DNA of 64,000 bases, from NCBI GenBank assembly GCA_017457955.1, contig JAFTGL010000015.1, forward strand, positions 1 through 64,000, given 5' to 3'. The position numbers were made by a program, and so were the translations under genes. This document shows positions 35,910 through 46,735 of this stretch, in pieces. The notes beneath the pieces are model-generated. The model ran no database searches. It worked only from the letters and a program-made list of their open reading frames with translations, and was not told where the DNA came from. The DNA is from Ruminococcus sp. Its GTDB lineage: Bacteria; Bacillota; Clostridia; Oscillospirales; Acutalibacteraceae. The first letter of the stretch is position 1. Each line of letters begins with the position of its first letter.

Positions 35910-35999
35910 GGAGGATTACTCAAGTGGTGAAGAGGCTCCCCTGCTAAGGGAGTAGGTCGCTAACGCGGCGCGAGAGTTCGAATCTCTTGTCCTCCGCCA
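35910..35999 (+). tRNA. tRNA-Ser (anticodon GCT), integration target
   Basis: A class II tRNA: acceptor GGAGGAT/GTCCTCC, anticodon loop CTGCTAA (anticodon GCT), a long variable arm, T-loop TTCGAAT and encoded CCA. Its last 23 bases form the left end of a 24-base direct repeat that recurs at 46379, marking integration of a mobile element. Confidence 0.95.
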
Positions 36000-36000
36000 G
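35977..36000. repeat. Attachment repeat attL (tRNA-Ser 3' end)
   Basis: The 24 bases from the T-loop to one base past CCA are repeated exactly at 46379-46402, and 22 of them again at 46714-46735. The gene-proximal copy completes the tRNA. Confidence 0.9.
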
Positions 36001-36040
36001 CCCGAAAATGGCTTGTTTAAGCCATTTTCGGGCTCTTTCT
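35999..36040 (+). terminator. tRNA terminator supplied at the left junction
   Basis: The stem 35999-36014/36019-36034 (16 bp, GTTT loop) starts on the last tRNA base and ends in CTTTCTTTT. Confidence 0.9.
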
Positions 36041-36057
36041 TTTGCCTGAAAAACGCC

Positions 36058-36078
36058 GTGTCCTTTGTCGTGTCCTTT
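36058..36078. promoter_or_regulatory. Candidate integrase arm-type sites, left end
   Basis: Two direct copies of GTGTCCTTT (36058-36066, 36070-36078), 12 bases apart, beside the integrase stop. The same pair occurs at the right end (46252-46271). Confidence 0.5.
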
Positions 36079-36080
36079 AT

Positions 36081-37319
36081 TCAGCCAGTTTGAAGCAGTG
36101 CGGCGACGTGATTCAGCGCTTTTTCATTTGCTTGCTGAACGGCGTGAGCATAGAAATTCAGTGTGGTACTGGTCTGACTGTGACCGAGCATAGCCGAGAC
36201 TGATTTCACATCTACGCCGTCTGCCAATGCTTGCGTCGCTACAAAATGTCGAAAACTGTGCAAGCCGTGGAACGGAATGTTTTCTTTTTCCAAAAAATCC
36301 TGCAGCCATTTATAAGGGACATTTGGATTCAGCGGCTTACCGCACCAGTTGATGAACAGCCTGTCGCTTTCTACCCACTGGTCGCCGCATTTCTCGGCGA
36401 TGGTTTTTTGTTCTTCTTGAAGCTGTTTGATTAAGTCAAGCAGAAAGGGTTGTATGTACAGCGACCGATAGCTGGATTTTGTTTTCGGCGTATCGGTGTA
36501 AGTGCCGAAGCCCTGATGATAATTAGATGTTCTGTTGATCGTCAGAATGGACTTTTTGAAATCAATGTCCTTATACTCCAAGCCTAATGCCTCGCCTTTT
36601 CGCATTCCCGAAAAAGCCAGAAGGTTGAAAAACAGCTTGTACGATAACGGCGCTTTGCTGTTGATCGCCGCCAGTACCTCTTTTGCTTCATCGAGAGAAT
36701 AGATCACTTTTTCTTTCTTCTCGGTCTGTGTAAAGACAATATCACGGCAGGGATTGATCTCTACGATACCGCAGCGCTTCGCATACAGCATGACGTCGCT
36801 GACAAATGTCAAATACGCCTTTTGGCTCTTTACGGATAGACCTTTTCCGGTTTGTTTATTCACACCGTTTTTACCTAAAGATGTGATAAAGGCTTGTACC
36901 ATCCGAAAGGTGATCCGGCTGACTAAGACGTCGCCGAGCGCGTTGTAGGTTCTTTCCTTACAGTCTTTCAGCTTAGTCAAGGTGCTCTTTTTGTATTTCA
37001 TGCTGGCGAGTTGCAGATCCATCCATTCTTCGGCGATCTCCTTAAAGGTAGTATGCGTTTTTGCATACTCGATCTCGTTTTCTTCTTTCTCTTTCTGCTC
37101 TTGTTCAAGCTCTATTTCTTTTTGATATTCTGCGTTTGCCCGTTCCTCGAACAGAACGCTTTGTCTGGTGACCTCCTTCTTGATTTGTTTTTGGGTCATC
37201 CCTTCTTCGGGCGTCCATGTCATACATTTGACGATCTGCTGACCGTCTTTATAACCGAGACTTACCCGAAACTGGTAGGATGATACGCCTTTCTTAGAAA
37301 CTCTTTTTCTGATTGTCAT
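36081..37319 (-). CDS. Tyrosine recombinase/integrase (Tn916-type)
   Basis: A 412-residue site-specific recombinase of the phage integrase family that inserts and excises the element. An N-terminal arm-binding domain (about 1-90, SYQFRVSLGYKDG, then a Glu-rich coil), a core-binding SAM-like domain (about 90-200), and a catalytic domain with Arg240 (SGMRKGEALGL), His354-Arg357 (LHSFRHF), His380 (MLGHSQT) and nucleophile Tyr390. Its 3' end abuts the tRNA-Ser target, the usual arrangement. The excisionase gene is upstream by 30 bases. Confidence 0.95.
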   Translation of the reverse strand: MTIRKRVSKKGVSSYQFRVSLGYKDGQQIVKCMTWTPEEGMTQKQIKKEVTRQSVLFEERANAEYQKEIELEQEQKEKEENEIEYAKTHTTFKEIAEEWMDLQLASMKYKKSTLTKLKDCKERTYNALGDVLVSRITFRMVQAFITSLGKNGVNKQTGKGLSVKSQKAYLTFVSDVMLYAKRCGIVEINPCRDIVFTQTEKKEKVIYSLDEAKEVLAAINSKAPLSYKLFFNLLAFSGMRKGEALGLEYKDIDFKKSILTINRTSNYHQGFGTYTDTPKTKSSYRSLYIQPFLLDLIKQLQEEQKTIAEKCGDQWVESDRLFINWCGKPLNPNVPYKWLQDFLEKENIPFHGLHSFRHFVATQALADGVDVKSVSAMLGHSQTSTTLNFYAHAVQQANEKALNHVAALLQTG

Positions 37320-37349
37320 GTGCTTAACCTCTTTTCCGGACAGTTAAGC

Positions 37350-37550
37350 TCAAGCAGCATCATTATTATAACATGCGAGCTTCTCTAAAAGCAAATCCAA
37401 ATTGATCAGTTTCTTCGATGCAATCTGGACAACAGCAATTTCCCCGTTATTCACCATACGTCTTAATGCCCTTAAAGTCAGGCACGTATGCGGGTCAAGT
37501 TCTTTGATTTCCTGATACGCTTTAGGAATGGTTCGCATTCTGGCGATCAT
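37350..37550 (-). CDS. Excisionase-like DNA-binding protein
   Basis: A 66-residue protein of the Tn916-Xis/MerR-like winged-helix type, with PKAYQEIKELDPHTCLTLRALRRMVNNGEI and INLDLLLEKL (split). Such proteins bias the integrase towards excision. ATG 37550 follows AAGGAAATC; the longer frame has no RBS. It lies directly upstream of the integrase on the same strand. Confidence 0.8.
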   Translation of the reverse strand: MIARMRTIPKAYQEIKELDPHTCLTLRALRRMVNNGEIAVVQIASKKLINLDLLLEKLACYNNDAA

Positions 37551-37641
37551 GATTTCCTTCCCCGTGGAAAACAACAGAACAAATGCTGTTATGTAACATC
37601 TGACGGATACCTTTATTAAGGCATAGTGGTTTTTTGATCAT
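37522..37641 (-). CDS. 39-residue ORF overlapping the excisionase start
   Basis: Strong RBS AAGGAGG with correct spacing precedes ATG 37641; the product starts MIKKPLCLNKGIRQML and ends 29 bases inside the excisionase gene. It could be a leader peptide that couples or limits excisionase translation, or a spurious frame behind a real RBS. No family recognised. Confidence 0.35.
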   Translation of the reverse strand: MIKKPLCLNKGIRQMLHNSICSVVFHGEGNHDRQNANHS

Positions 37642-37808
37642 AAAAATGATCCTCCTTAAAGTAATAATAATGGATTTGTATACTCTTCCGGCTTCGCATA
37701 AGCCTCATTGGTTTTCACCACCGCGAGGATCGCCCGCGGCCGCCCTCATTGCCTGCGACGGCGTATGCCCGAAGGCATGTCCGCTCGGACTGTGACTGGA
37801 CGGAAGTA

Positions 37809-38066
37809 TCATTGTCCTCTGCGGCTGTCATCGCCTTCGGCAAGGGATGCGCCCTTGCCGTCTGAGTCCTGAAGGCTGATTAGCGTTCGCTCATATAGCT
37901 CGTGTGGTTCTCGTGTTACACACACCGCAGAGAATGTAGAAGATAAGTAGTATTCAGTTGTTAAGGTTTGTAATGCTTCGGGATAATAATCGACAGTTTT
38001 CTTAAACAGAAGAAGGCCGGAGTGCAGTTCCAAAACGGAAGCTGAACGCCGGCCATTACGTTCCAT
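37809..38066 (-). CDS. Doubtful hypothetical protein in element
   Basis: An 85-codon frame in the 37.65-38.30 kb gap. The sequence (ERNGRRSASVLELHSG, then YYPEALQTLTTEYYLSS) has no signal, TM or known motif, and overlaps a GC-rich hairpin at about 38011-38053, so it may be non-coding. The rest of the gap, 37680-37800 (unusually GC-rich) and 38070-38304, shows no gene I can support. Treat as low confidence. Confidence 0.2.
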   Translation of the reverse strand: MERNGRRSASVLELHSGLLLFKKTVDYYPEALQTLTTEYYLSSTFSAVCVTREPHELYERTLISLQDSDGKGASLAEGDDSRRGQ

Positions 38067-38304
38067 ATTCGATTATACTAATTCGTGATAGATAAGACTT
38101 TGATAGACAACATCGACGGGGATTGTGGGGATCAGACCGCGAAGATTGTCTGCTTTTTGTGGATTGTCTTCTTTTATTAGGTATTAGTAACAGTCCCGAT
38201 TTGAACCCACACATAATATACCAGATTGGCAGGTCTGTTGTCTTAAGAACCCTGTCGAAGAATATCCTGATTTTATGAACATTTTGTAAACATATTATTT
38301 ACGT

Positions 38305-38353
38305 AAAAAAGATTCATCTATCATTTATCGTGGTAAAAAATGATAGATGAATC
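38305..38353 (-). terminator. Strong terminator of the DUF3990/HTH operon
   Basis: The perfect 16-bp stem 38311-38326/38338-38353 is followed on the minus strand by TTTTTT. Confidence 0.92.
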
Positions 38354-38386
38354 GAATTTTGATAGATGTAATATTGTTTTTGTGGA

Positions 38387-39037
38387 TTAGCTTTCAGCGG
38401 AGATGGGTACCTTTTCCATCAAATCTTCCGGTTCACAATAGAGGGCTTTTGCTAATCGGATAACGTATTCTGCACGGGCTGCATTGATGTTTTTCTGTCG
38501 CTGTTCGTATTGTTGGATCGTTCTCAACGGCACTCCGCTTTCCTCTGCGAGTTGTGATTGGCTCAGACCGGCTTTCAGACGGTATCGCTTTAAGTTTGTA
38601 ATAGGATTTTTGCCGAGATATATCTCGTTTAGCAGATCGCAGAAATGTCGGATATCCATCTCGTGATACGGAGAATAGAGAGCCTTGATTTTCAGAATAT
38701 CATCCGCATCGAAAATGTCCTTGAACGCGATACCGGTATCCCATTGGTAGTAAGCAAGTGCCCATCCCAGCCAGTATTCTTCGGAACGATCGGCAGTAGG
38801 TCTTGTTTTGACATGCTGAACACTGTCACCGAGAACAGTATAAGCCATTTCAATACCGGACATCCCCGCGAGTAGCGAGGAATCGCCTCTCTCAAACCGC
38901 TTGCATACCTCGCTGTTCAGAAAACTTGCCCAAAACTTACGCAGATCCATATGCAGATCATAAACGGCAAAATCCAGCATACGCCCCAACGCGACGCGAG
39001 CCTTTTCCAAATATATTTTATCGTAAGCGTGGATCAT
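38387..39037 (-). CDS. XRE-type HTH protein, partner of the DUF3990 protein
   Basis: A 216-residue two-part protein. The N-terminal about 140 residues are a helical unknown domain (KFWASFLNSEVCKRFERGD, SSLLAGMSGIEM), and the C-terminus (about 148-208) is a Cro/C1 helix-turn-helix (YRLKAGLSQSQLAEESGVPL, RTIQQYEQRQ). It starts 20 bases inside the upstream DUF3990 gene. The arrangement resembles a toxin-antitoxin pair in which this protein would neutralise its partner and repress the operon at the two palindromes at 39711-39763. Confidence 0.85.
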   Translation of the reverse strand: MIHAYDKIYLEKARVALGRMLDFAVYDLHMDLRKFWASFLNSEVCKRFERGDSSLLAGMSGIEMAYTVLGDSVQHVKTRPTADRSEEYWLGWALAYYQWDTGIAFKDIFDADDILKIKALYSPYHEMDIRHFCDLLNEIYLGKNPITNLKRYRLKAGLSQSQLAEESGVPLRTIQQYEQRQKNINAARAEYVIRLAKALYCEPEDLMEKVPISAES

Positions 39038-39695
39038 TCGGCTTCATCTCCTCGTCCATGATAGCGGTGATGTACAAGTCGCCTCTTTGACGTCGATTGC
39101 GCTCAGTGTCAAAGTATTCTCTACGAGCTGCCTTGTCACGGTATTCTTTCTTCGCATACCACTCACTGTAGAGAGCGATCTCGTTCCCAACATATTGTAT
39201 GCGACCGAAGGCGTCTTTACTCTTTAGGACGATCTGCTGACCGAGCTTACCTAAGTGCATGGCGTTATTGAGCTGTCGGTATGAGATTGTACCGTTGATG
39301 AAATCCTGCGCAAAGGAAAAGTAGCTGTCATCCGCACGGTATCCAATCATGATATCCGCTTTGGAGTAATCGATCAGAAAGTTTTCCAAGATATACTCTC
39401 TTGCGTCATAGGCAAGACCGGAAGGAATATCGAACTCGCGGTTTTTAAGCAAAACAGCCAGCCAGTGAAGGATACAGTAATCATTACCGTTAAGATCAAG
39501 AATTGTCAGTCCGTCCATTTCAATATCATAGATGTTTGCATAGCCGTTGCGGTCGGGAGCAACGCCCCATTCCTTCGCCATATCGATGGAGTCGGTACAG
39601 TAAAATCCGAGACCGTAATCGTTATATGCCTTACCGTAACCAAACTTAGGCTTCTTGATAATATCCTTTGAGCCATGATAAATACGCTGAATCAT
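39018..39695 (-). CDS. DUF3990 protein, probable ADP-ribosyltransferase-fold toxin
   Basis: A 225-residue protein matching the DUF3990 pattern: IYHGSKDIIKKPKFGYGK at the N-terminus, then DYGLGFYCTDSIDMAKEWG, YDIEMDGLTILDL, and a C-terminal RQLNNAMHLGKLGQQIVLKS. The H-G-S and Y-G-x-G-F-Y-C-T segments resemble the NAD-binding core of ADP-ribosyltransferases, to which DUF3990 is related. As first gene of an autoregulated pair on a mobile element it is probably a toxin or anti-phage effector. Enzyme activity is an inference. Confidence 0.8.
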   Translation of the reverse strand: MIQRIYHGSKDIIKKPKFGYGKAYNDYGLGFYCTDSIDMAKEWGVAPDRNGYANIYDIEMDGLTILDLNGNDYCILHWLAVLLKNREFDIPSGLAYDAREYILENFLIDYSKADIMIGYRADDSYFSFAQDFINGTISYRQLNNAMHLGKLGQQIVLKSKDAFGRIQYVGNEIALYSEWYAKKEYRDKAARREYFDTERNRRQRGDLYITAIMDEEMKPNDPRLR

Positions 39696-39710
39696 GACAA
39701 CGCCTCCTTG

Positions 39711-39772
39711 TACTCCTTTAGGAGTATATACTGCTTTGCTTGTATTATACTCCCAAAGGAGTAGTGTGTCAA
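39711..39772 (-). promoter_or_regulatory. Consensus promoter with two identical operators, DUF3990/HTH operon
   Basis: TTGACA (39767-39772), 17 bases, TATAAT (39744-39749) on the minus strand. TACTCC-N4-GGAGTA occurs twice: 39748-39763 in the spacer, overlapping the -10 edge, and 39711-39726 before the RBS (centres 37 bp apart). Binding would block polymerase, consistent with autorepression by the HTH protein. Confidence 0.85.
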
Positions 39773-39842
39773 TAGACTAATGTAAATCTTTGTATTATCA
39801 TATAGTCAAGAATTCAATAAGTACAGGGGACGGTCGAAAGGG

Positions 39843-41048
39843 TCATCTATCCCGACCATTTCGTACTTTCGATGAACGACGTTGTTGCTCTTTCTCTTTT
39901 TCAGTGAACAGAGAGCCGATATGCTCAATGAATCGTTGGACTACGTCAGGAAAATGCTCTAACCCTTGCAAGAAAGGACTGCACATTGCTGTCAGCATAT
40001 CGTATTTATTCTGAATTCGATTAAACGCTCTGCGGTACTTGCCCGTTTCATCTTGATAGCGCTTCACTTGATCCCGAAGCTCTCCGATTTTCACTCTGCT
40101 GGAAATGCCCTCTTTTGCGAGAGCAGTCAGGTCAGTATAATCTTCCTTAGAGATAGAATAATTGCCGGTAAGAGGATTTTTCTTGCCGGCATTGTCTATC
40201 GCCTGATAGGTTTTTGAGATTCCCTTTGCAGACTCATATTCGATTTTTGCTTTTTGGATATGGCGTTCGATCTTAGCAAGACGCTCTTTGTCCTTTTCGA
40301 TTTGATATTGCAGAGAGGATAGATGTTCGACCGTGCTGCCTTCCTTGCCTCGGTCAAAGCCTGTGAATCCGTGTTCGGTCATATGACGAAAGAATTCATC
40401 TTGTAAAATACTGTAGGACGGTCGGAACTTCGGCTTGCCGTTCTTTCGCATGATTGGTTCGCCGTAATCGTCCAACATCGGCTCACGGGATTCCCACTTC
40501 TTTGAGTGGCTGATTTGGTGAATGACCTCTTTGACCGTTCCAACCAGCTCAGGATCTTTACAACGCTTGCTCCAGCGGATTTCTTTCTCCACGACCGGCA
40601 GAGCAATCAGGTGCATATGGTAGTGGTACACCGGATGACCCAGCTCGTCGCTGACAGCTTTGTTGATCTCGTCCGCGTGCATAACGGCAGAGATGATATT
40701 TTCCTCTCCATATTTCTCACAGGCGTAACGGTACGCCTCGGTGAAGAACTCTTTTGCATACTCATAGCCGCCGCGTTCCTCGAAGTACATCGTGTTGATG
40801 TCAAAGATGATCTCGTCAAACAAGACGGCGTCGGCTCTTAACCCACGGCGTGAGACCTTACCTTCAGCCTCCATATCTTTCAAAATCTGCATATAGGTTT
40901 TGTCTTCGGGACTTTTGAAATGAACATTCATCGGTATCCGTTCCGGTTCAACATTGATATTACTGTAATCGGTATTTTTCCTTTCGGTATGTCGTTCTGC
41001 TGCGCTGATTTTTGCCGCCGTGTAGGTCTGCACTCTGGCGCAGCACAT
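39843..41048 (-). CDS. MobV/Pre-type relaxase
   Basis: A 401-residue mobilization relaxase that nicks the element's oriT and pilots DNA through a conjugation pore supplied in trans. The N-terminus has VQTYTAAKISAAERHTERKN as in MobV proteins; the metal-binding motif is HPVYHYHMHLIALPV after DE. A long coiled coil (about 255-370) follows. ATG 41048 has no close ribosome-binding site: GGAG lies about 35 bases upstream, and the conserved frame reads upstream (KHISKAKTN) to a TGA, so a non-AUG start (ATT) about 24 bases earlier is possible. Confidence 0.88.
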   Translation of the reverse strand: MCCARVQTYTAAKISAAERHTERKNTDYSNINVEPERIPMNVHFKSPEDKTYMQILKDMEAEGKVSRRGLRADAVLFDEIIFDINTMYFEERGGYEYAKEFFTEAYRYACEKYGEENIISAVMHADEINKAVSDELGHPVYHYHMHLIALPVVEKEIRWSKRCKDPELVGTVKEVIHQISHSKKWESREPMLDDYGEPIMRKNGKPKFRPSYSILQDEFFRHMTEHGFTGFDRGKEGSTVEHLSSLQYQIEKDKERLAKIERHIQKAKIEYESAKGISKTYQAIDNAGKKNPLTGNYSISKEDYTDLTALAKEGISSRVKIGELRDQVKRYQDETGKYRRAFNRIQNKYDMLTAMCSPFLQGLEHFPDVVQRFIEHIGSLFTEKEKEQQRRSSKVRNGRDR

Positions 41049-41116
41049 ATTGGTTTTTGCTTTTGAAATATGTTTTCACTCCATTCGTTTTGTATTGATG
41101 CGCATGTATTGTTGCC

Positions 41117-41153
41117 TTATACAAGATTCGTTGAATCTGTATAACCCACTATG
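41117..41153. other. Candidate MobV-type oriT
   Basis: On the minus strand CATAGTGGG/TTATAC resembles the pMV158 nick TATAGTGTG/TTATAC, with the predicted nick between 41145 and 41144. It is followed by an inverted repeat (41117-41144, 12-bp arms with one bulge, 3-base loop). It lies about 70 bases upstream of the relaxase. Confidence 0.7.
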
Positions 41154-41214
41154 ACACTTTCAGCGCTGCTGCAAAGATGTCGTGGGCAAGGGCTTTCCTC
41201 CCTTGACCCTCCGC

Positions 41215-42285
41215 TCAGCTTGTTTTGAAATCCAGGTCTCCATTATTGGTTTTGGTGTGATCCTCCTGATTGGTTGTTTCGGCTGTCGGCAAAGTCCAGT
41301 ACCAGATCATACCTTCCTTTACAGAGACAATGCCTGCTTCTTTCTTTGCCTTTTTGATGGTTGATTTCTTAAAGCCGTTGTCTTTCAAAAGCTCTTCGCA
41401 GGCAGCGGAGGGGAGCTTGCCGCACTTCATCAAATCTAAGATGAAATCCTTACATGACTCAAATTCCTCATTTGGTTTGCCAAGCTTTGGAGCAACAGAA
41501 GCGAAGGCCTGTTCCGCGGTCATTTCGATCTCGTCGATAAAACTGATTCCGTTTTCACTAACCTCAAAGAGGATCGCAGAGCCGGTCGGTGCGAGATTGG
41601 ATTTCACCTGAACCATCACGCGCTCGTTCGGATTCTCCTTATTTGGTGTTCGCGTGATTGCCAGAATACTCCGTGCAACGCCGGCAATATCGATCGAGCC
41701 GGACGTCCGATAGAGGGGTGAGGTTTCTCTCAGTTTGTTCATGTGGGCGATAATCACGATTGCACAGCCGGTATCTTTTGCGACGCCTATCAGGTGATTG
41801 AACGCAGCTCTTGTTTCATTAGCAGCGTTCAGAGAGCATCCTTCGCCGATATATGAACTGAGAGGATCGAGAATCAACAGCTTTGCTCCCGACTGCTCGA
41901 TAGCCGACCGGATACGGTCGTCGCCGAAGGTCAGATTCTTTTCATCCTCGCGGATAAAAAGTAGCTTGTTCCTGTCGCCGTCGGATGCAATAAAACGCGG
42001 TACGACGGTATCGTCCGCGTCATCCTCGGTGGTCTGGTAGATAACTGTCATTGGCTCATGGGTATCTTCTTCATCCGCAAACGGCAAAGGCTTTCCTTTG
42101 GAAACGAGCGCCGACATCGCCAGCATCAGCTGACTTTTGCCGTCGCCGGGATCACCCTGTAACAGCGTGACCTTACCGAACGGGATGTAGGGATACCACA
42201 GCCATTCCACTTTCTTTGGCGTGATGTCGCTCGCCTTGACGAGCTGCAGTTGTGCTGCTTCTGTTGCATTTTGATTTCGTTTCAT
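41215..42285 (-). CDS. RepA-like AAA ATPase (RecA-fold helicase)
   Basis: A 356-residue P-loop ATPase like plasmid RepA/primase-associated helicases (AAA_25), which unwind or load during element replication. Walker A is GDPGDGKS (44-51); Walker B is LLILDPLSSYIG (Asp140); later IVIIAHMNKL and SGSIDIAGVARSILAI fit the family. A C-terminal helical domain (about 270-350) is probably DNA binding. ATG 42285 is nine bases from AAGGAG and overlaps the stop of the small Cys-rich gene (ATGA). Confidence 0.85.
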   Translation of the reverse strand: MKRNQNATEAAQLQLVKASDITPKKVEWLWYPYIPFGKVTLLQGDPGDGKSQLMLAMSALVSKGKPLPFADEEDTHEPMTVIYQTTEDDADDTVVPRFIASDGDRNKLLFIREDEKNLTFGDDRIRSAIEQSGAKLLILDPLSSYIGEGCSLNAANETRAAFNHLIGVAKDTGCAIVIIAHMNKLRETSPLYRTSGSIDIAGVARSILAITRTPNKENPNERVMVQVKSNLAPTGSAILFEVSENGISFIDEIEMTAEQAFASVAPKLGKPNEEFESCKDFILDLMKCGKLPSAACEELLKDNGFKKSTIKKAKKEAGIVSVKEGMIWYWTLPTAETTNQEDHTKTNNGDLDFKTS

Positions 42286-42455
42286 TTCTTCTTTCTCCTT
42301 TTTGATAGATAATTGGGGCATTGGAGAATGACGGCGCGAAAGCTCTGCTTACAGTCGTGCTCGCACCTGCGGCACAGGCTGTTGTAGGCTCTGCGCCCTC
42401 TGTCGTTCAGGAAGAACGACCATTCCAACTTTTTCTTTTTTGACATTCGTGGCAT
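42282..42455 (-). CDS. Small basic Cys-rich protein (57 residues)
   Basis: A short gene behind an excellent RBS (AGGAGGCGG). The product is very basic and has four Cys in CRRCEHDC plus one in LQCP; it may bind zinc. Residues KKKKLEWSFFLNDRGRRAY start it. It overlaps the RepA-like gene start by four bases and is probably co-translated. Similar tiny proteins accompany Rep-type ATPases in clostridial elements, from memory; function unknown. Confidence 0.8.
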   Translation of the reverse strand: MPRMSKKKKLEWSFFLNDRGRRAYNSLCRRCEHDCKQSFRAVILQCPNYLSKRRKKK

Positions 42456-42526
42456 ATTTCCGCCTCCTATTATTTGCTCGATCTTACGATCGGCGAGTTA
42501 TATAACCTAAAAGCGCACAAACAACA

Positions 42527-42579
42527 AAACGCTCAAAACCTCTCCAAACTGTATCGTTTCGGAGCGATTTTAAGCGTTT
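42527..42579. repeat. Large imperfect inverted repeat upstream of the Rep operon
   Basis: Arms AAACGCT/AGCGTTT, AAAA/TTTT and CTCC/GGAG line up with three small mismatches around a 15-base centre. It sits just upstream of the small Cys-rich gene, so it could be a replication origin or operator. The 42456-42526 stretch also has TTGTTT, 16 bases, TATAAC on the minus strand as a weak promoter. Confidence 0.4.
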
Positions 42580-42667
42580 TTCTTCTCTCTGAGGCTCAAA
42601 TAATTGAACGGAGTATAAATTCTCCAACTTTGCCTCAATATTCAATTATGTCGCTTTTGGGTATCAA

Positions 42668-42703
42668 AAAAGGACCTGTTCTTTGAATTGAACAGATCCT
42701 TTT
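42668..42703 (-). terminator. Intrinsic terminator of the methyltransferase gene
   Basis: The stem 42668-42681/42690-42703 (14 bp, one mismatch) with A- and T-runs on both sides. Confidence 0.88.
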
Positions 42704-42765
42704 ATTGCTTAGATAGTTGATAAGTTGGATGTTCTGGTAGAACTGCAGTAAATTAGCAGTCATTA

Positions 42766-43524
42766 TTACTTTTTAGCTACTATCAAATACCTATGTATTG
42801 TTCCATCAACAGAACCATTGCGTTCCAGAATCTGCTGCGCTTGAAGTAATCTGTCAAAACAATTTTCAACCGAGAAGCCTTGAAACTCCCATTCGATGAT
42901 CCTCGCAAACCAGACTAATGCGCCAACATCATAAAATCTGATTGGACGATATGCTTTTTCACCTCTCAATATTGAAAATCCCGCATTTCGGAATAATTCT
43001 GATTGAATATGTAATGTTGCATTAGGAAAAGGCTTCGGTAAATCCGGGCATAAGAGCTCGATTAACTCTCTGTCATTATGAGAACCAACTTGTTGAGTGA
43101 TAAACATTCCGTTCGGTTTTAGTATTCTATATAATTCTTCAACATTGTAATTACCGTGTCTGTTGATAATCATATCAAATGAATCATCATCGAACGGCAT
43201 ATTATCATATCGACTCATTTCCTTGAAATCAATTCCGAGCGGTAAGAGCGTTTGTTTGCATAGCGATATATTGGGCGGATACCCTTCTGTAACACTCGTA
43301 TTGTGGTACGGATGACGGAGCGACAACAAGAATTCACCGCCGCCGGTATCAATATCAAGCAGCTTCAAATCGTCTTTTAGATATGATAATACAATCTGCT
43401 TGTAATCCCACGGCAAATCGTTTTCTTCCTCATATCTGCCGTTGATGTGAGAAAAGTCCCAGCCGTTTATATAAGCCGCTTCCTGCTCTTTAAGCCATAT
43501 TTGTTTTAATTCTTCTGTGTTCAT
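42766..43524 (-). CDS. Class I SAM-dependent methyltransferase
   Basis: A 252-residue Rossmann-fold methyltransferase. SAM motif I is LLDIDTGGGEFLLSL (55-69), and the motif IV-like region is PFDDDSFDMIINRHGNYNVEE; later LKPNGMFITQQVGSHNDREL. The substrate is unknown; UbiE- or antibiotic-modifying enzymes are possible. It is AT-rich cargo between the Rep operon and the NACHT gene. AGGAG precedes the start. No partner gene is adjacent; 43525-43696 shows nothing else. Confidence 0.85.
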   Translation of the reverse strand: MNTEELKQIWLKEQEAAYINGWDFSHINGRYEEENDLPWDYKQIVLSYLKDDLKLLDIDTGGGEFLLSLRHPYHNTSVTEGYPPNISLCKQTLLPLGIDFKEMSRYDNMPFDDDSFDMIINRHGNYNVEELYRILKPNGMFITQQVGSHNDRELIELLCPDLPKPFPNATLHIQSELFRNAGFSILRGEKAYRPIRFYDVGALVWFARIIEWEFQGFSVENCFDRLLQAQQILERNGSVDGTIHRYLIVAKK

Positions 43525-43696
43525 CTATAACTACTCCTTTGTATTCTTAATTATTCGAGGAAAAGGTGCAGTTAACTGACAACTTATATTACTCGGTACA
43601 ATCTGCTGTCAGATTATTCACTGCACCGAGTTGCTAATTCGCAAATTAATCATAAAAAACTCCTATGGAAAAGTATATTGTCAACTAATCATTGCT

Positions 43697-45520
43697 CTAT
43701 TTAAATAAGGATTCAATCTCTTCTTCTGCTTCATCTTGACGCTTATTTAATGAGTCGTGCAAATTTGAGATAGTTTTAATGAATAAACCTAGTGTTGTTT
43801 CAGTTGTTATTTTACTGAACAATGCATTGTCTTTATAAATTGTTTCACTGGTAATTTCAGTATTCATATTCTTTGAAAATAATTTTTTTAAATTTTTCTT
43901 CATTTCTTTATTCTTATTATTATATTTGTTGAAAATTAATAACAAAAAATGAATATTAATATCTTCGTTAAAGGATATAAATATACTGATGTTATTATCA
44001 GTGAATCTCCAGTTGTAGAAACCTTTAAGCTTTTTTGAGAGAACTATTTCAGGATTGAAATAATCAATACCGTCCGATATTATTACCGAATCCACAAGAT
44101 AGCAATAGAAACTTCTAATTCTATCGCCACTATTAACTCTTTCCTCTAAAATGTTAAGATATGGCAATATCACATTCTTTTCGAATCTTGCTGGAGCCAT
44201 ATCTAATAACATACTAAAAACAGAATCATACGAAAAAGTATATCTTCGCTTATTGATAATATTTTTACATGCTTTTGATTGTAAGTCATCATCTAAATTC
44301 TTTAAGAATAATGCTGAAAAATACTCTTGAAAGGAGCGGTGAATAAACCTATAATCCAATCCATCAACGAAGATTAAACATACTCCAGATTTTATATCTT
44401 CTAAATAGTATTCAGCATTAAATCCTTGAATGTTTTTCCCTGCAATTTCCAGTTCTTGAATGATTTCCTCGTGAGTAAACTCTATCTTTCCTTTTACATA
44501 ACTGAAAAAGCAAAATGATGAAAAAACTCTCTTAAAAACATCCGAGGGAAGTCCGGATAATAGATTGCGCTTAAACCCCTCTGGTTTTGTGGCATCATGT
44601 ATTGAAAACAAGGTATCAAATGCTTGTGAATAAAATATATGCAGTTTTTCAGGGATTTCCGCGTAGTTTTCATAAGTTAAAAGCATAATGTTTAGCAAAA
44701 GCGGGTTACATGCAAATGATCTATGCCTTTCGTACAACTCATTATCTAACTCTGTTAAAAATTTCTCCTTTATGCTTTTATCATAATCTATCTTATTAAT
44801 TAGTGATAGTGCTTTTTCTTTCGAAAAGTCTTCGGTTTCAAACTTATAAAATCTACTCCAACCGATAAATTCTTCGCAAGGTCTTGAAGAGACTATATAA
44901 TAGTTATCAGAATACCTATCTGTAAAATCGTCTATTCTCTTTAAAAAGTCTTTTTTATCTTTTTCAGGTATTTCATCATATCCATCCAGTAAAATTAAAA
45001 ATAAACCGCTTTCTAGAGCGTATTCAAAATATTTTTGTTCAAGATTAAACCCTAGATTGCTTATATTCTTATAGCAATAAGTTACAAGATCATCGGAGTT
45101 ACTGTAACTTCTCAATTCAACAAAAAGAGGTACTAGATCATTATTACTTAGTGCATTAAGGAAGAAATGCTTCATAAGCGTAGACTTTCCCATTCCACCA
45201 TTGCCAACAACCAAATTATAATGAGAATACTTTAATATATTGTTGACGTTATCGCAATCTATTGTATCATCATCTAATAATAGATTATTGCACTCAAAAA
45301 AATCATATAGAAATCGAGGTTGGTTTTTATATAATATAGTCTTAATCGAACTGTACTTATAGTAGGATTTCTTTGAATACTCTATAAACGCTGTTCTTAG
45401 ATCGACTTTTGACTTGTTAATAAGATCAGAACACTTGTCCTTCACAAAACTAAATACTTTATCAATTTTTGATTCGATTAGTTTTTCTGCTGCTTTGTAG
45501 AATGTCTCTTCTGGTGTCAT
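43697..45520 (-). CDS. NACHT-domain NTPase, probable antiphage sensor
   Basis: A 607-residue STAND NTPase. An N-terminal helical region (about 1-95) carries no known effector motif; the NACHT core has Walker A GNGGMGKST (106-114), Walker B LILLDGYDEIP (Asp179, Asp182, Glu183) and IVSSRPCEE. A winged-helix region and an alpha-helical C-terminal sensor (FIHRSFQEYFSALFL to about 600) follow. Bacterial bNACHT and Avs proteins of this design sense phage proteins and kill or arrest the cell. The gene is very AT-rich. AGGAGG precedes ATG 45520. No separate effector is recognised, so the N-terminus may be the effector. Confidence 0.85.
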   Translation of the reverse strand: MTPEETFYKAAEKLIESKIDKVFSFVKDKCSDLINKSKVDLRTAFIEYSKKSYYKYSSIKTILYKNQPRFLYDFFECNNLLLDDDTIDCDNVNNILKYSHYNLVVGNGGMGKSTLMKHFFLNALSNNDLVPLFVELRSYSNSDDLVTYCYKNISNLGFNLEQKYFEYALESGLFLILLDGYDEIPEKDKKDFLKRIDDFTDRYSDNYYIVSSRPCEEFIGWSRFYKFETEDFSKEKALSLINKIDYDKSIKEKFLTELDNELYERHRSFACNPLLLNIMLLTYENYAEIPEKLHIFYSQAFDTLFSIHDATKPEGFKRNLLSGLPSDVFKRVFSSFCFFSYVKGKIEFTHEEIIQELEIAGKNIQGFNAEYYLEDIKSGVCLIFVDGLDYRFIHRSFQEYFSALFLKNLDDDLQSKACKNIINKRRYTFSYDSVFSMLLDMAPARFEKNVILPYLNILEERVNSGDRIRSFYCYLVDSVIISDGIDYFNPEIVLSKKLKGFYNWRFTDNNISIFISFNEDINIHFLLLIFNKYNNKNKEMKKNLKKLFSKNMNTEITSETIYKDNALFSKITTETTLGLFIKTISNLHDSLNKRQDEAEEEIESLFK

Positions 45521-45575
45521 ATGATCGCCTCCTTACTAATTATTATATCATAAGGAACAATCATCTTCAAGATGT

Positions 45576-45719
45576 TCATTTGTTTTGATTATCTTCTTTT
45601 AGTCTTTGGTTTTCTTCATATAAAAAAATAAGATGGGGCATAATATCAATAACTTGTAGTTTTAAATTATAAGAAAACCAGTCATCTATTATCTCTTTTA
45701 TAACCTGATACCTATCCAT
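45576..45719 (-). CDS. 47-residue small protein upstream of NACHT gene
   Basis: A tiny gene behind GAGGTG, product MDRYQVIKEIIDDWF then LKLQVIDIMPHLIFLYEEN, an amphipathic, partly coiled-coil helix with Glu/Lys/Asn tail. It ends 55 bases before the NACHT start, so both are one transcript. It may be a chaperone, inhibitor or adaptor of the NACHT protein; no family recognised. Confidence 0.65.
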   Translation of the reverse strand: MDRYQVIKEIIDDWFSYNLKLQVIDIMPHLIFLYEENQRLKEDNQNK

Positions 45720-45803
45720 TACAAATCACCTCAATAATTAATAATTGCATTATAATTCCATTCAAACAAGAAACATGTCATAAATCAACATGTATATATT
45801 ATT

Positions 45804-45832
45804 ATTGTATCGAATATTTGTTCTATTGTCAA
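45804..45832 (-). promoter_or_regulatory. Strong promoter of the NACHT operon
   Basis: On the minus strand TTGACA, 17 bases, TACAAT. An ACATGT...ACATGT inverted repeat lies in the leader (about 45774-45793). Confidence 0.8.
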
Positions 45833-45859
45833 TAGATATAGGTCAATTTTATGTGGTAT

Positions 45860-45890
45860 AAAAAAGACTGTCACTCACTATTGTGAATGG
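45860..45890 (-). terminator. Terminator of the ribbon-helix-helix pseudogene
   Basis: The stem CATTCAC/GTGAGTG (45872-45878/45883-45889) plus outer pairs is followed on the minus strand by TTTTTT, 13 bases after the pseudogene stop. Confidence 0.8.
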
Positions 45891-45902
45891 CTATCCTTTC
45901 AC

Positions 45903-46064
45903 TTAAAATTCTATTCTTTTGTGTTTCACTTCATATTCATCAACCGCGTCGCGAATGAGGATTAAAATCTGACTGTTCGCAGAGCGCCCTTCATAGGCAT
46001 CAATAACAAGTAGCTTATTCAGCATTTCCTAATCAATTCGTATTTATAAACTCTTTATAGCCAT
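45903..46064 (-). pseudogene. Arc-type ribbon-helix-helix DNA-binding gene with two in-frame stops
   Basis: The frame reads MAIKSL, TAA, IRID, TAG, EMLNKL, then YEGRSANSQILILIRDAV and EYEVKHKRIEF, the classic 53-residue Arc/RHH pattern (MAIKS-x-IRID-x-EMLNKL). Both nonsense codons lie in the first beta strand, removing the DNA-contacting ribbon. No frameshift is needed: 54 codons from ATG 46064 to TAA 45903. I infer recent inactivation of an element regulator, since its terminator is still intact. Confidence 0.75.
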
Positions 46065-46251
46065 GATTGTATCTCATTTCGTGTTTAATATGGCTATTTT
46101 TATACCTAATATTTGCTATCATGTCTAATATAGTTACACCAAAATAAAGCTCTTTCGACGAGTGTCAGTACTTATTGACTTCTTGAACGCTTGAAAGGGA
46201 CAAAGAAATAGCCGCTGTCGGATGACGGCGGCTGTGCTGCCTGAGCTTTCT

Positions 46252-46271
46252 GTGTCCTTTACGTGTCCTTT
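46252..46271. promoter_or_regulatory. Candidate integrase arm-type sites, right end
   Basis: Two copies of GTGTCCTTT (46252-46260, 46263-46271), like the pair beside the integrase at 36058. The surrounding 46065-46378 is otherwise without genes; a hairpin lies at 46210-46233. Confidence 0.5.
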
Positions 46272-46378
46272 ATTTAAATGAAATGATGTGAAAACTTGTG
46301 AAATGTGAAAGTGAAGAAATGGCTTAAAACCTGACTTTTTGGCACATCGTGGAACAAGGTGAAACGTCTCAGGCGTAT

Positions 46379-46402
46379 TTCGAATCTCTTGTCCTCCGCC
46401 AG
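46379..46402. repeat. Attachment repeat attR, inner copy
   Basis: An exact 24-base copy of the tRNA-Ser(GCT) 3' end at 35977-36000, on the same strand. It marks the right end of the mobilizable element. Confidence 0.9.
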
Positions 46403-46713: not shown

Positions 46714-46735
46714 CGAATCTCTTGTCCTCCGCCAG
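46714..46735. repeat. Attachment repeat attR, outer copy
   Basis: A 22-base copy of the same tRNA-Ser 3' end; it lacks the first TT and is followed by another terminator. It probably marks the original chromosomal attB. Confidence 0.85.

What the first reader, a model, noticed from the sequence alone, without database searches (positions are those of the whole stretch)
43697..45832. NACHT defence-like operon with a 47-residue partner
A STAND/NACHT NTPase on a mobile element with its own TTGACA-17-TACAAT promoter and an upstream 47-residue helical protein (45576-45719), absent from the usual bNACHT description. The N-terminal about 95 residues carry no known nuclease, TIR or CARD-like effector. 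The small protein may be a sensor adaptor or an inhibitor.
Basis: partly seen in the sequence, partly recalled or inferred. Interest (0 to 1): 0.75.

Follow-up and report, generated by a model that had tools for sequence, protein, structure and literature searches.

The report
NACHT immune gene with helical partner
A mobile piece of bacterial DNA carries a gene related to the NACHT immune sensors of bacteria and animals together with a real, tiny helical protein gene, and the two behave as one travelling pair, although what the tiny protein does is not yet known.

Summary
A 607-aa NACHT STAND NTPase (43697-45520, -) follows a 47-aa ORF (45576-45719) and a TTGACA-17-TACAAT site. Both are cargo of a 10.4-kb integrative mobilizable element in a tRNA-Ser gene, bounded by a 24-bp repeat; three related elements carry other DNA there. 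The small ORF is very probably a genuine gene: another species of the genus (G056) has the same pair, in the same order, as an AT-rich insertion beside ychF. The two small proteins are 49% identical, as are the two NACHT proteins, and both genes have similar pN/pS (0.51, wide interval, and 0.48). The partner is confined to this pair of sequences: 2 of 88 NACHT places held. The NACHT protein belongs by sequence to the short bNACHT group whose members bear SNaCT domains (clade 14, bNACHT01 type), already described as lacking a recognisable effector, so that part is not new. Its own C-terminus matches no SNaCT model. I read the pair as a two-gene anti-phage module in which the single-helix protein binds and regulates the NACHT protein, more probably as a brake than as a sensor adaptor. 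Binding, direction of control and phage protection are inference. New variant of a known kind.

The parts
43697..45520 (-). NACHT STAND NTPase, 607 aa: N-terminal ~95 aa without a known domain, NACHT module (Walker A GNGGMGKST, K112), HRSFQEYF motif (394-401), divergent C-terminal ~150 aa
45576..45719 (-). small partner, 47 aa, predicted single helix (residues 3-46, mean pLDDT 93.5, single-sequence model)
45804..45832 (-). promoter-like site TTGACA-17-TACAAT in front of the small ORF
   Evidence: consensus match only
45542..45570 (-). second promoter-like site TTGAAG-17-TATAAT with TG before the second hexamer, between small ORF and NACHT gene; could uncouple NACHT expression
   Evidence: consensus match only
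45521..45575 (-). 55-nt gap between the two ORFs, with AAGGAGG ahead of the NACHT start
36001..46402 (.). integrative mobilizable element that carries the pair (integrase end at tRNA-Ser, relaxase, RepA-like ATPase, cargo)
35977..36000 (+). att-like repeat, tRNA-Ser(gct) 3' end
46379..46402 (+). att-like repeat, far end of the element

Best explanation
A two-gene immune cassette carried as cargo by an integrative mobilizable element. The large protein is a short bNACHT-type STAND NTPase: its C-terminal region would sense infection, its NACHT module would bind nucleotide and oligomerise, and the oligomer would stop growth or kill the cell. The 47-aa protein is a dedicated partner: a single long helix that binds the NACHT protein (I guess its helical N-terminus or NACHT module) and most likely keeps it off until infection, as a built-in brake. 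Shown: the genes, the element, the homology, the same pair in two places, and constraint on both proteins. Inferred: co-transcription, binding, direction of control, trigger, killing and phage protection. That the two proteins work together in defence I hold at about 0.6; the brake reading alone at about 0.35.
For: Pair present in two species in unrelated places: tRNA-Ser element here, and the ychF-thioesterase gap in G056, where blastn against the window finds a single shared stretch, inside the NACHT gene (the small genes are alike only as proteins). In 9 of the 11 other genus loci examined the two genes that flank that second site lie next to each other without the cassette. The two small proteins are 49% identical, the NACHT proteins 49%; codon-position identity 60/77/49% and 64/72/47%; dN 0.44, dS 1.53 against dN 0.43, dS 1.69; pN/pS 0.51 (bootstrap 0.28-0.95, 2% at or above 1) against 0.48. 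NACHT relation: Pfam NACHT, profile hits to NLRP3 and NLRC4, 10 of 15 NACHT proteins scanned bear SNaCT6, 7 or 14 domains, a 29%-identical phage gene whose record notes NLR_like_bNACHT01. Small gene first. Precedent that a defence protein can be restrained by a small neighbour: AS1 of Sofic, there encoded downstream (PMC12249575, abstract).
Against: 86 of 88 NACHT places held lack the small gene, so the NACHT core can do without it; L007 and L008, the next nearest, lack it. Only two small-protein sequences were found, in spite of searches of 198 relative, 161 genus and 329 family genomes (these sets overlap), viral contigs, plasmids and phages. The pN/pS interval nearly reaches 1, and silent sites are close to saturation. 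The helix is not clearly amphipathic (moment not above shuffles) and 7 of 13 or 8 of 16 heptad core positions are hydrophobic, so a classic coiled coil is not supported. The window NACHT scores just under Pfam's cut-off (25.5 against 26.7). No complex and no NACHT fold could be predicted.
Confidence: 0.6

Rival explanations
1. The small protein is a positive partner: a sensor adaptor or a detached piece of the effector or N-terminal region which the NACHT oligomer needs in order to act.
For: Within the same supported 46-row group of the tree, 42 rows are longer proteins (658-946 aa by mechanical start choice, against 593-607 in window, L002, L007, L008). In L051 and L098 a 296- or 293-aa ORF of the kind that starts many of these proteins is separate and overlaps the NACHT ORF by 4 nt, and L008 has a 366-aa ORF 14 nt upstream. 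Upstream parts, fused or separate, thus recur in this branch.
Against: The small-protein model finds no match in those proteins. L007 has neither an extension nor a like ORF upstream.
Confidence: 0.25
2. The small ORF is an unrelated passenger or a maintenance function that happens to be inherited next to the NACHT gene.
For: Rare partner; most NACHT homologues held do without it.
Against: Same neighbour, order and near-equal divergence in two different insertion sites; at E up to 0.001 not found apart from the NACHT gene in 161 genus genomes.
Confidence: 0.1
3. The small ORF is a leader that controls translation of the NACHT gene in cis; its peptide does not matter.
For: Upstream position, 55-nt gap.
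Against: Constraint is on the amino-acid sequence (second codon positions 77% identical, third 49%); the intergenic stretches show no evident likeness (printed, not aligned).
Confidence: 0.05

Closest known systems
bNACHT proteins of clade 14 with SNaCT domain (bNACHT02, 11, 12; bNACHT01 recalled)
   Same: Length, short N-terminus without recognisable effector, NACHT core, C-terminal region at the same position; homologues at 32-38% identity carry Pfam SNaCT6 or 7; a 29%-identical gene is noted as NLR_like_bNACHT01 (PMC12169576 passages). That bNACHT01 itself is of clade 14 is recalled.
   Different: Own C-terminus matches no SNaCT model; a conserved 47-56-aa upstream partner, which I did not see described in the listings of searches; the 2023 founding paper is not held.
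Sofic with its small antitoxin AS1
   Same: Defence protein with a small neighbouring gene that restrains it (PMC12249575, abstract and outline).
   Different: Sofic is a FIC-domain AMPylating protein; AS1 lies downstream; no sequence comparison made.
Avs (AVAST) STAND systems and animal NLRs (NLRP3, NLRC4)
   Same: STAND/NACHT NTPase logic; profile hits to NLRP3 and NLRC4.
   Different: Much shorter, no sensor repeat recognised; no Avs model hit for the window protein (a homologue, L010, has a weak Avs2 hit, E 0.01).

Membership tests
bNACHT (bacterial NACHT proteins) | NACHT module with Walker A/B | tested here: met
   Pfam NACHT E 1.3e-05, 25.5 bits, just under the 26.7 cut-off for the window protein; nearest homologue L002 above it (27.6); K112, D179, D182, E183 invariant in 43 of 43
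bNACHT clade 14 (SNaCT) | C-terminal SNaCT domain | tested here: inconclusive
   No SNaCT hit for window, L002, L007, L008 and L015; hits in L003, L010, L012, L016, L017, L018, L044-L047, that is 10 of 15 NACHT proteins scanned; hhalign of the C-terminal region to the SNaCT7-type group gives 97% probability over 51 columns at its start only
bNACHT clade 14 (SNaCT) | No readily discernible N-terminal effector | tested here: met
   No effector family for residues 1-95 in Pfam, PADLOC, PHROGs, NCBIfam; criterion from PMC12169576
bNACHT | Protection against phage | not testable with these tools
   needs a plating assay
toxin-antitoxin-like pair | Small gene and large gene adjacent, inherited together | tested here: met
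   window and G056; two cases only
toxin-antitoxin-like pair | Small protein neutralises a toxic large one | not testable with these tools
   needs expression of each alone and together
Avs (AVAST) | Avs profile match | tested here: not met
   no Avs hit at E up to 1 for the window protein in PADLOC

The most novel reading that the evidence does not exclude
An effectorless bacterial NLR-related protein that has a dedicated single-helix micro-protein, a built-in brake or licensing subunit, which moves with it as a minimal two-gene cassette: the first small-protein regulator of a bacterial NACHT immune receptor.
Probability: 0.35. Interest if true: 0.75.

Novelty: new variant of a known kind. 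Interest (0 to 1): 0.48.

Why it matters
How effectorless bNACHT proteins are held off and how they act is, as far as I know, open. A natural two-gene version with a 47-aa partner would give a direct genetic handle: remove or separate the small gene and see whether the large one becomes toxic or inactive. It also shows that annotation which skips ORFs under about 50 aa can hide subunits of defence systems.

Tried and rejected
Small ORF as chance ORF: rejected. Small ORF as part of the N-terminal stretch of longer relatives: no match. Small protein as membrane peptide: maximum 19-residue hydropathy about 1.0. Amphipathic or classic coiled coil: not supported. The downstream methyltransferase (42766-43524) as third member: no match to it near the G056 pair by blastn. 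Weak PHROG and PDB matches of the small protein were taken as helix noise. Weak hits of the small-protein model in genus genomes at E 0.01-1, two of which (L031, L023) pass HMMER's inclusion line at E about 0.01: the four aligned (L031, L023, L026, L024) match 19-27 of 56 positions, and no NACHT match lies in those loci or in L028; the rest were not inspected. Fold of the NACHT protein: not obtained.

Rows left out: the tree used 79 rows; L014, L017 and L020 were not in the input, L019 and L111 were dropped by me, L100, L107, L108 and L110 fell out because the Walker pattern was not found. The count of 88 NACHT places is 19 genome or plasmid places (window, L002-L005, L007-L020) plus 69 viral loci; L006, a short fragment match, is not counted. 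They are not all independent (L011/L047, L069/L070 and L066/L068 were identical over the tree region). Genome loci hold 1500 bases on each side of the match, and L109 begins at its gene, so a partner further off would be missed. L143-L146 were not searched for the small protein. A last one-liner meant to recount NACHT loci gave no usable number and is not used.

Full report
What is there. On the minus strand a 47-codon ORF (45719-45576) is followed after 55 nt by a 607-codon ORF (45520-43697). Both have a ribosome-binding-like stretch, GAGGTGAT and AAGGAGG. A TTGACA-17-TACAAT site lies at 45832-45804, and a second promoter-like site (TTGAAG-17-TATAAT, TG before the second hexamer) lies between the ORFs at 45570-45542; the region is AT-rich and 25 such sites were found against 16.5 (sd 4.0) in shuffles, so these are leads only. 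Window 43001-46000 has 30-33% G+C; the kilobases beside it have 44% and 49%.

The carrier. Tyrosine integrase 36081-37319, Mob_Pre relaxase 39843-41048, AAA_25 RepA-like ATPase 41215-42321 ('RepA-like' is recalled) and a 24-bp repeat of the tRNA-Ser(gct) 3' end at 35977-36000 and 46379-46402 mark a 10.4-kb integrative mobilizable element; a third, 22-bp copy lies at 46714-46735. The RepA-like gene has a match in 31 of 161 genomes of the genus, own genome counted. Six of these places were read. L126 and L127 sit behind the same tRNA-Ser genes and match at 80-86% up to window 42584 and 42670, then carry other DNA; L127 resumes at 46169 and has its own far-end repeat; L126 was read only to 14 kb. 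L128 matches up to 42706 and then differs; its tRNA end was not seen. L125 ends at its contig end just past the RepA-like gene and says nothing. L129 and L130 are more distant. None of the six has a NACHT or small-protein match. The NACHT pair is therefore variable cargo.

The large protein. Pfam NACHT is found at E 1.3e-05, slightly under the curated cut-off; the profile of 14 homologues hits NLRP3 and NLRC4 with E 1.7e-4 and 4.5e-4 at best. Two PHROG families of unknown function match it over most of its length (phrog_18297, E 3.6e-92; phrog_32986, E 3.9e-37). Nearest homologues are L002 (49%), L007 (43%) and L008 (40%). Matches occur in 4 of 198 relatives at E up to 0.001, 8 of 394 order and 5 of 391 class genomes at E up to 1e-20 (own genome counted each time, sets overlap), 69 viral-contig loci, 211 of 72,556 plasmid and 2 of 50,697 phage records. 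Of 15 NACHT proteins scanned, 10 have Pfam SNaCT domains: SNaCT7 in L003, L010, L016, L044-L047, SNaCT6 in L018, SNaCT14 in L012 and L017; window, L002, L007, L008 and L015 have none. The C-terminal region of the window group aligns to the SNaCT7-type group only over 51 columns at its start (hhalign 97%) and then diverges; between window and L002 it is also the least conserved part (36% against 55% for the core and 46% for the N-terminal 95 residues), as expected of a sensor. A Vibrio phage homologue (29%) is noted as NLR_like_bNACHT01 in its record. Clade 14 bNACHT proteins are described as having SNaCT domains but no readily discernible effector (PMC12169576, passages read).

The small protein. 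The nearest NACHT relative, L002 in genome G056, has a 56-aa ORF 51 nt upstream that is 49% identical, score 114 against at most 54 in 5000 shuffles. Constraint acts on the protein: codon-position identity 60/77/49%, dN 0.44 and dS 1.53, beside 64/72/47%, 0.43 and 1.69 for the NACHT gene; pN/pS 0.51, bootstrap 0.28-0.95, 2% at or above 1. With two sequences and near-saturated silent sites this is good but not overwhelming. Both genes diverged at about the same pace, as a co-inherited pair would. AlphaFold without alignment gives one continuous helix, residues 3-46, mean pLDDT 93.5; single-sequence models of short helical peptides deserve caution. The helix is not clearly amphipathic. No family in Pfam, PADLOC or NCBIfam; weak PHROG and PDB matches only.

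The pair as a unit. In G056 the pair is an island of about 2.4 kb with 23-29% G+C between ychF and a thioesterase-like gene (names recalled from sequence), in DNA of about 50% G+C; the 20 kb read show no tRNA and no integrase that I recognised in the ORF list, and blastn against the 64-kb window finds one shared stretch, in the NACHT gene. The thioesterase-like gene has a match in 57 of 100 genus genomes; of the 11 best loci besides G056's own, 9 have ychF next to it without the cassette and two, L132 and L140, show other DNA in the 1.5 kb held. So the same two genes sit in two unrelated places, which is the strongest argument that they belong together.

How far it reaches. The small family was found in 2 of 161 genus genomes, the window's own and G056, in 1 of 329 family genomes, the window's own, and beside 2 of 88 NACHT places. 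At E up to 1, 54 of 198 relatives gave something, but the best after these two had E 0.015, and those aligned are short partial matches. In the tree of 79 rows the window and L002 form a clade (100/99), inside a supported group of 46 rows (98/97) with L007, L008 and 42 longer proteins; the order among these three parts is not resolved (83/44). In L051 and L098 of the 42 an upstream ORF of 296 or 293 aa overlaps the NACHT ORF by 4 nt; L008 has a 366-aa upstream ORF with a sub-threshold HEPN match. Upstream partners or extra N-terminal parts thus recur in this branch, though none is similar to the 47-aa protein by the model used.

Mechanism. Following the STAND scheme (C-terminal sensing, NACHT oligomerisation, N-terminal output; introduction passages of PMC12169576), I propose that the small helix binds the large protein and controls it. 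I prefer a brake: small gene first, joint inheritance, an effectorless protein whose mere presence might be costly, and the precedent of a small neighbour restraining a defence toxin (AS1 of Sofic, abstract). A positive adaptor is nearly as likely. Nothing here shows binding, toxicity or protection.

Literature. Searches (8 of 8 listed; 20 of 40; 20 of 54; 15 of 297; 15 of 22; 10 of 205) listed no paper that, by title and start of abstract, describes a small-protein partner of a bacterial NACHT protein; the 2023 founding paper is not held, so this absence is weak.

Noticed in passing
window 45903-46064 (-): Remnant resembling an Arc/ribbon-helix-helix regulator (resemblance recalled, no Pfam hit for its 40-aa open part) with two in-frame stop codons near its start.
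   Followed up: partly
window 46714-46735: Third copy of the att-like repeat about 310 bases beyond the element's far end, with only short ORFs (67 aa at most) between: trace of an earlier or tandem integration.
   Followed up: partly
window 38387-39695 (-): DUF3990 gene beside and overlapping a helix-turn-helix gene: toxin-antitoxin-like pair; the stretch is matched in the related element L128, while L126 and L127 have a 326-aa ORF there.
   Followed up: partly
L127:7739-14100, L128:4857-10234: Related elements carry other cargo where the window has the NACHT pair, among it a 923-aa ORF in L128 and a 1215-aa ORF in L127.
   Followed up: no
L051:2601-3491, L098:2109-2990: Upstream ORFs (with LCGGTF near the start, as at the start of several long NACHT relatives) overlapping the NACHT ORF by 4 nt; no Pfam match for the L051 one.
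   Followed up: no
L008:4829-5929: 366-aa ORF 14 nt upstream of a NACHT gene, sub-threshold HEPN_Cthe2314 match: another possible partner.
   Followed up: no
L004 and L005 (G109:C89): Two related NACHT genes in tandem in a species of the same genus.
   Followed up: no
L041:8563-10975, L132, L140: The gap between ychF and a thioesterase-like gene seems to take up different AT-rich insertions in this genus.
   Followed up: partly
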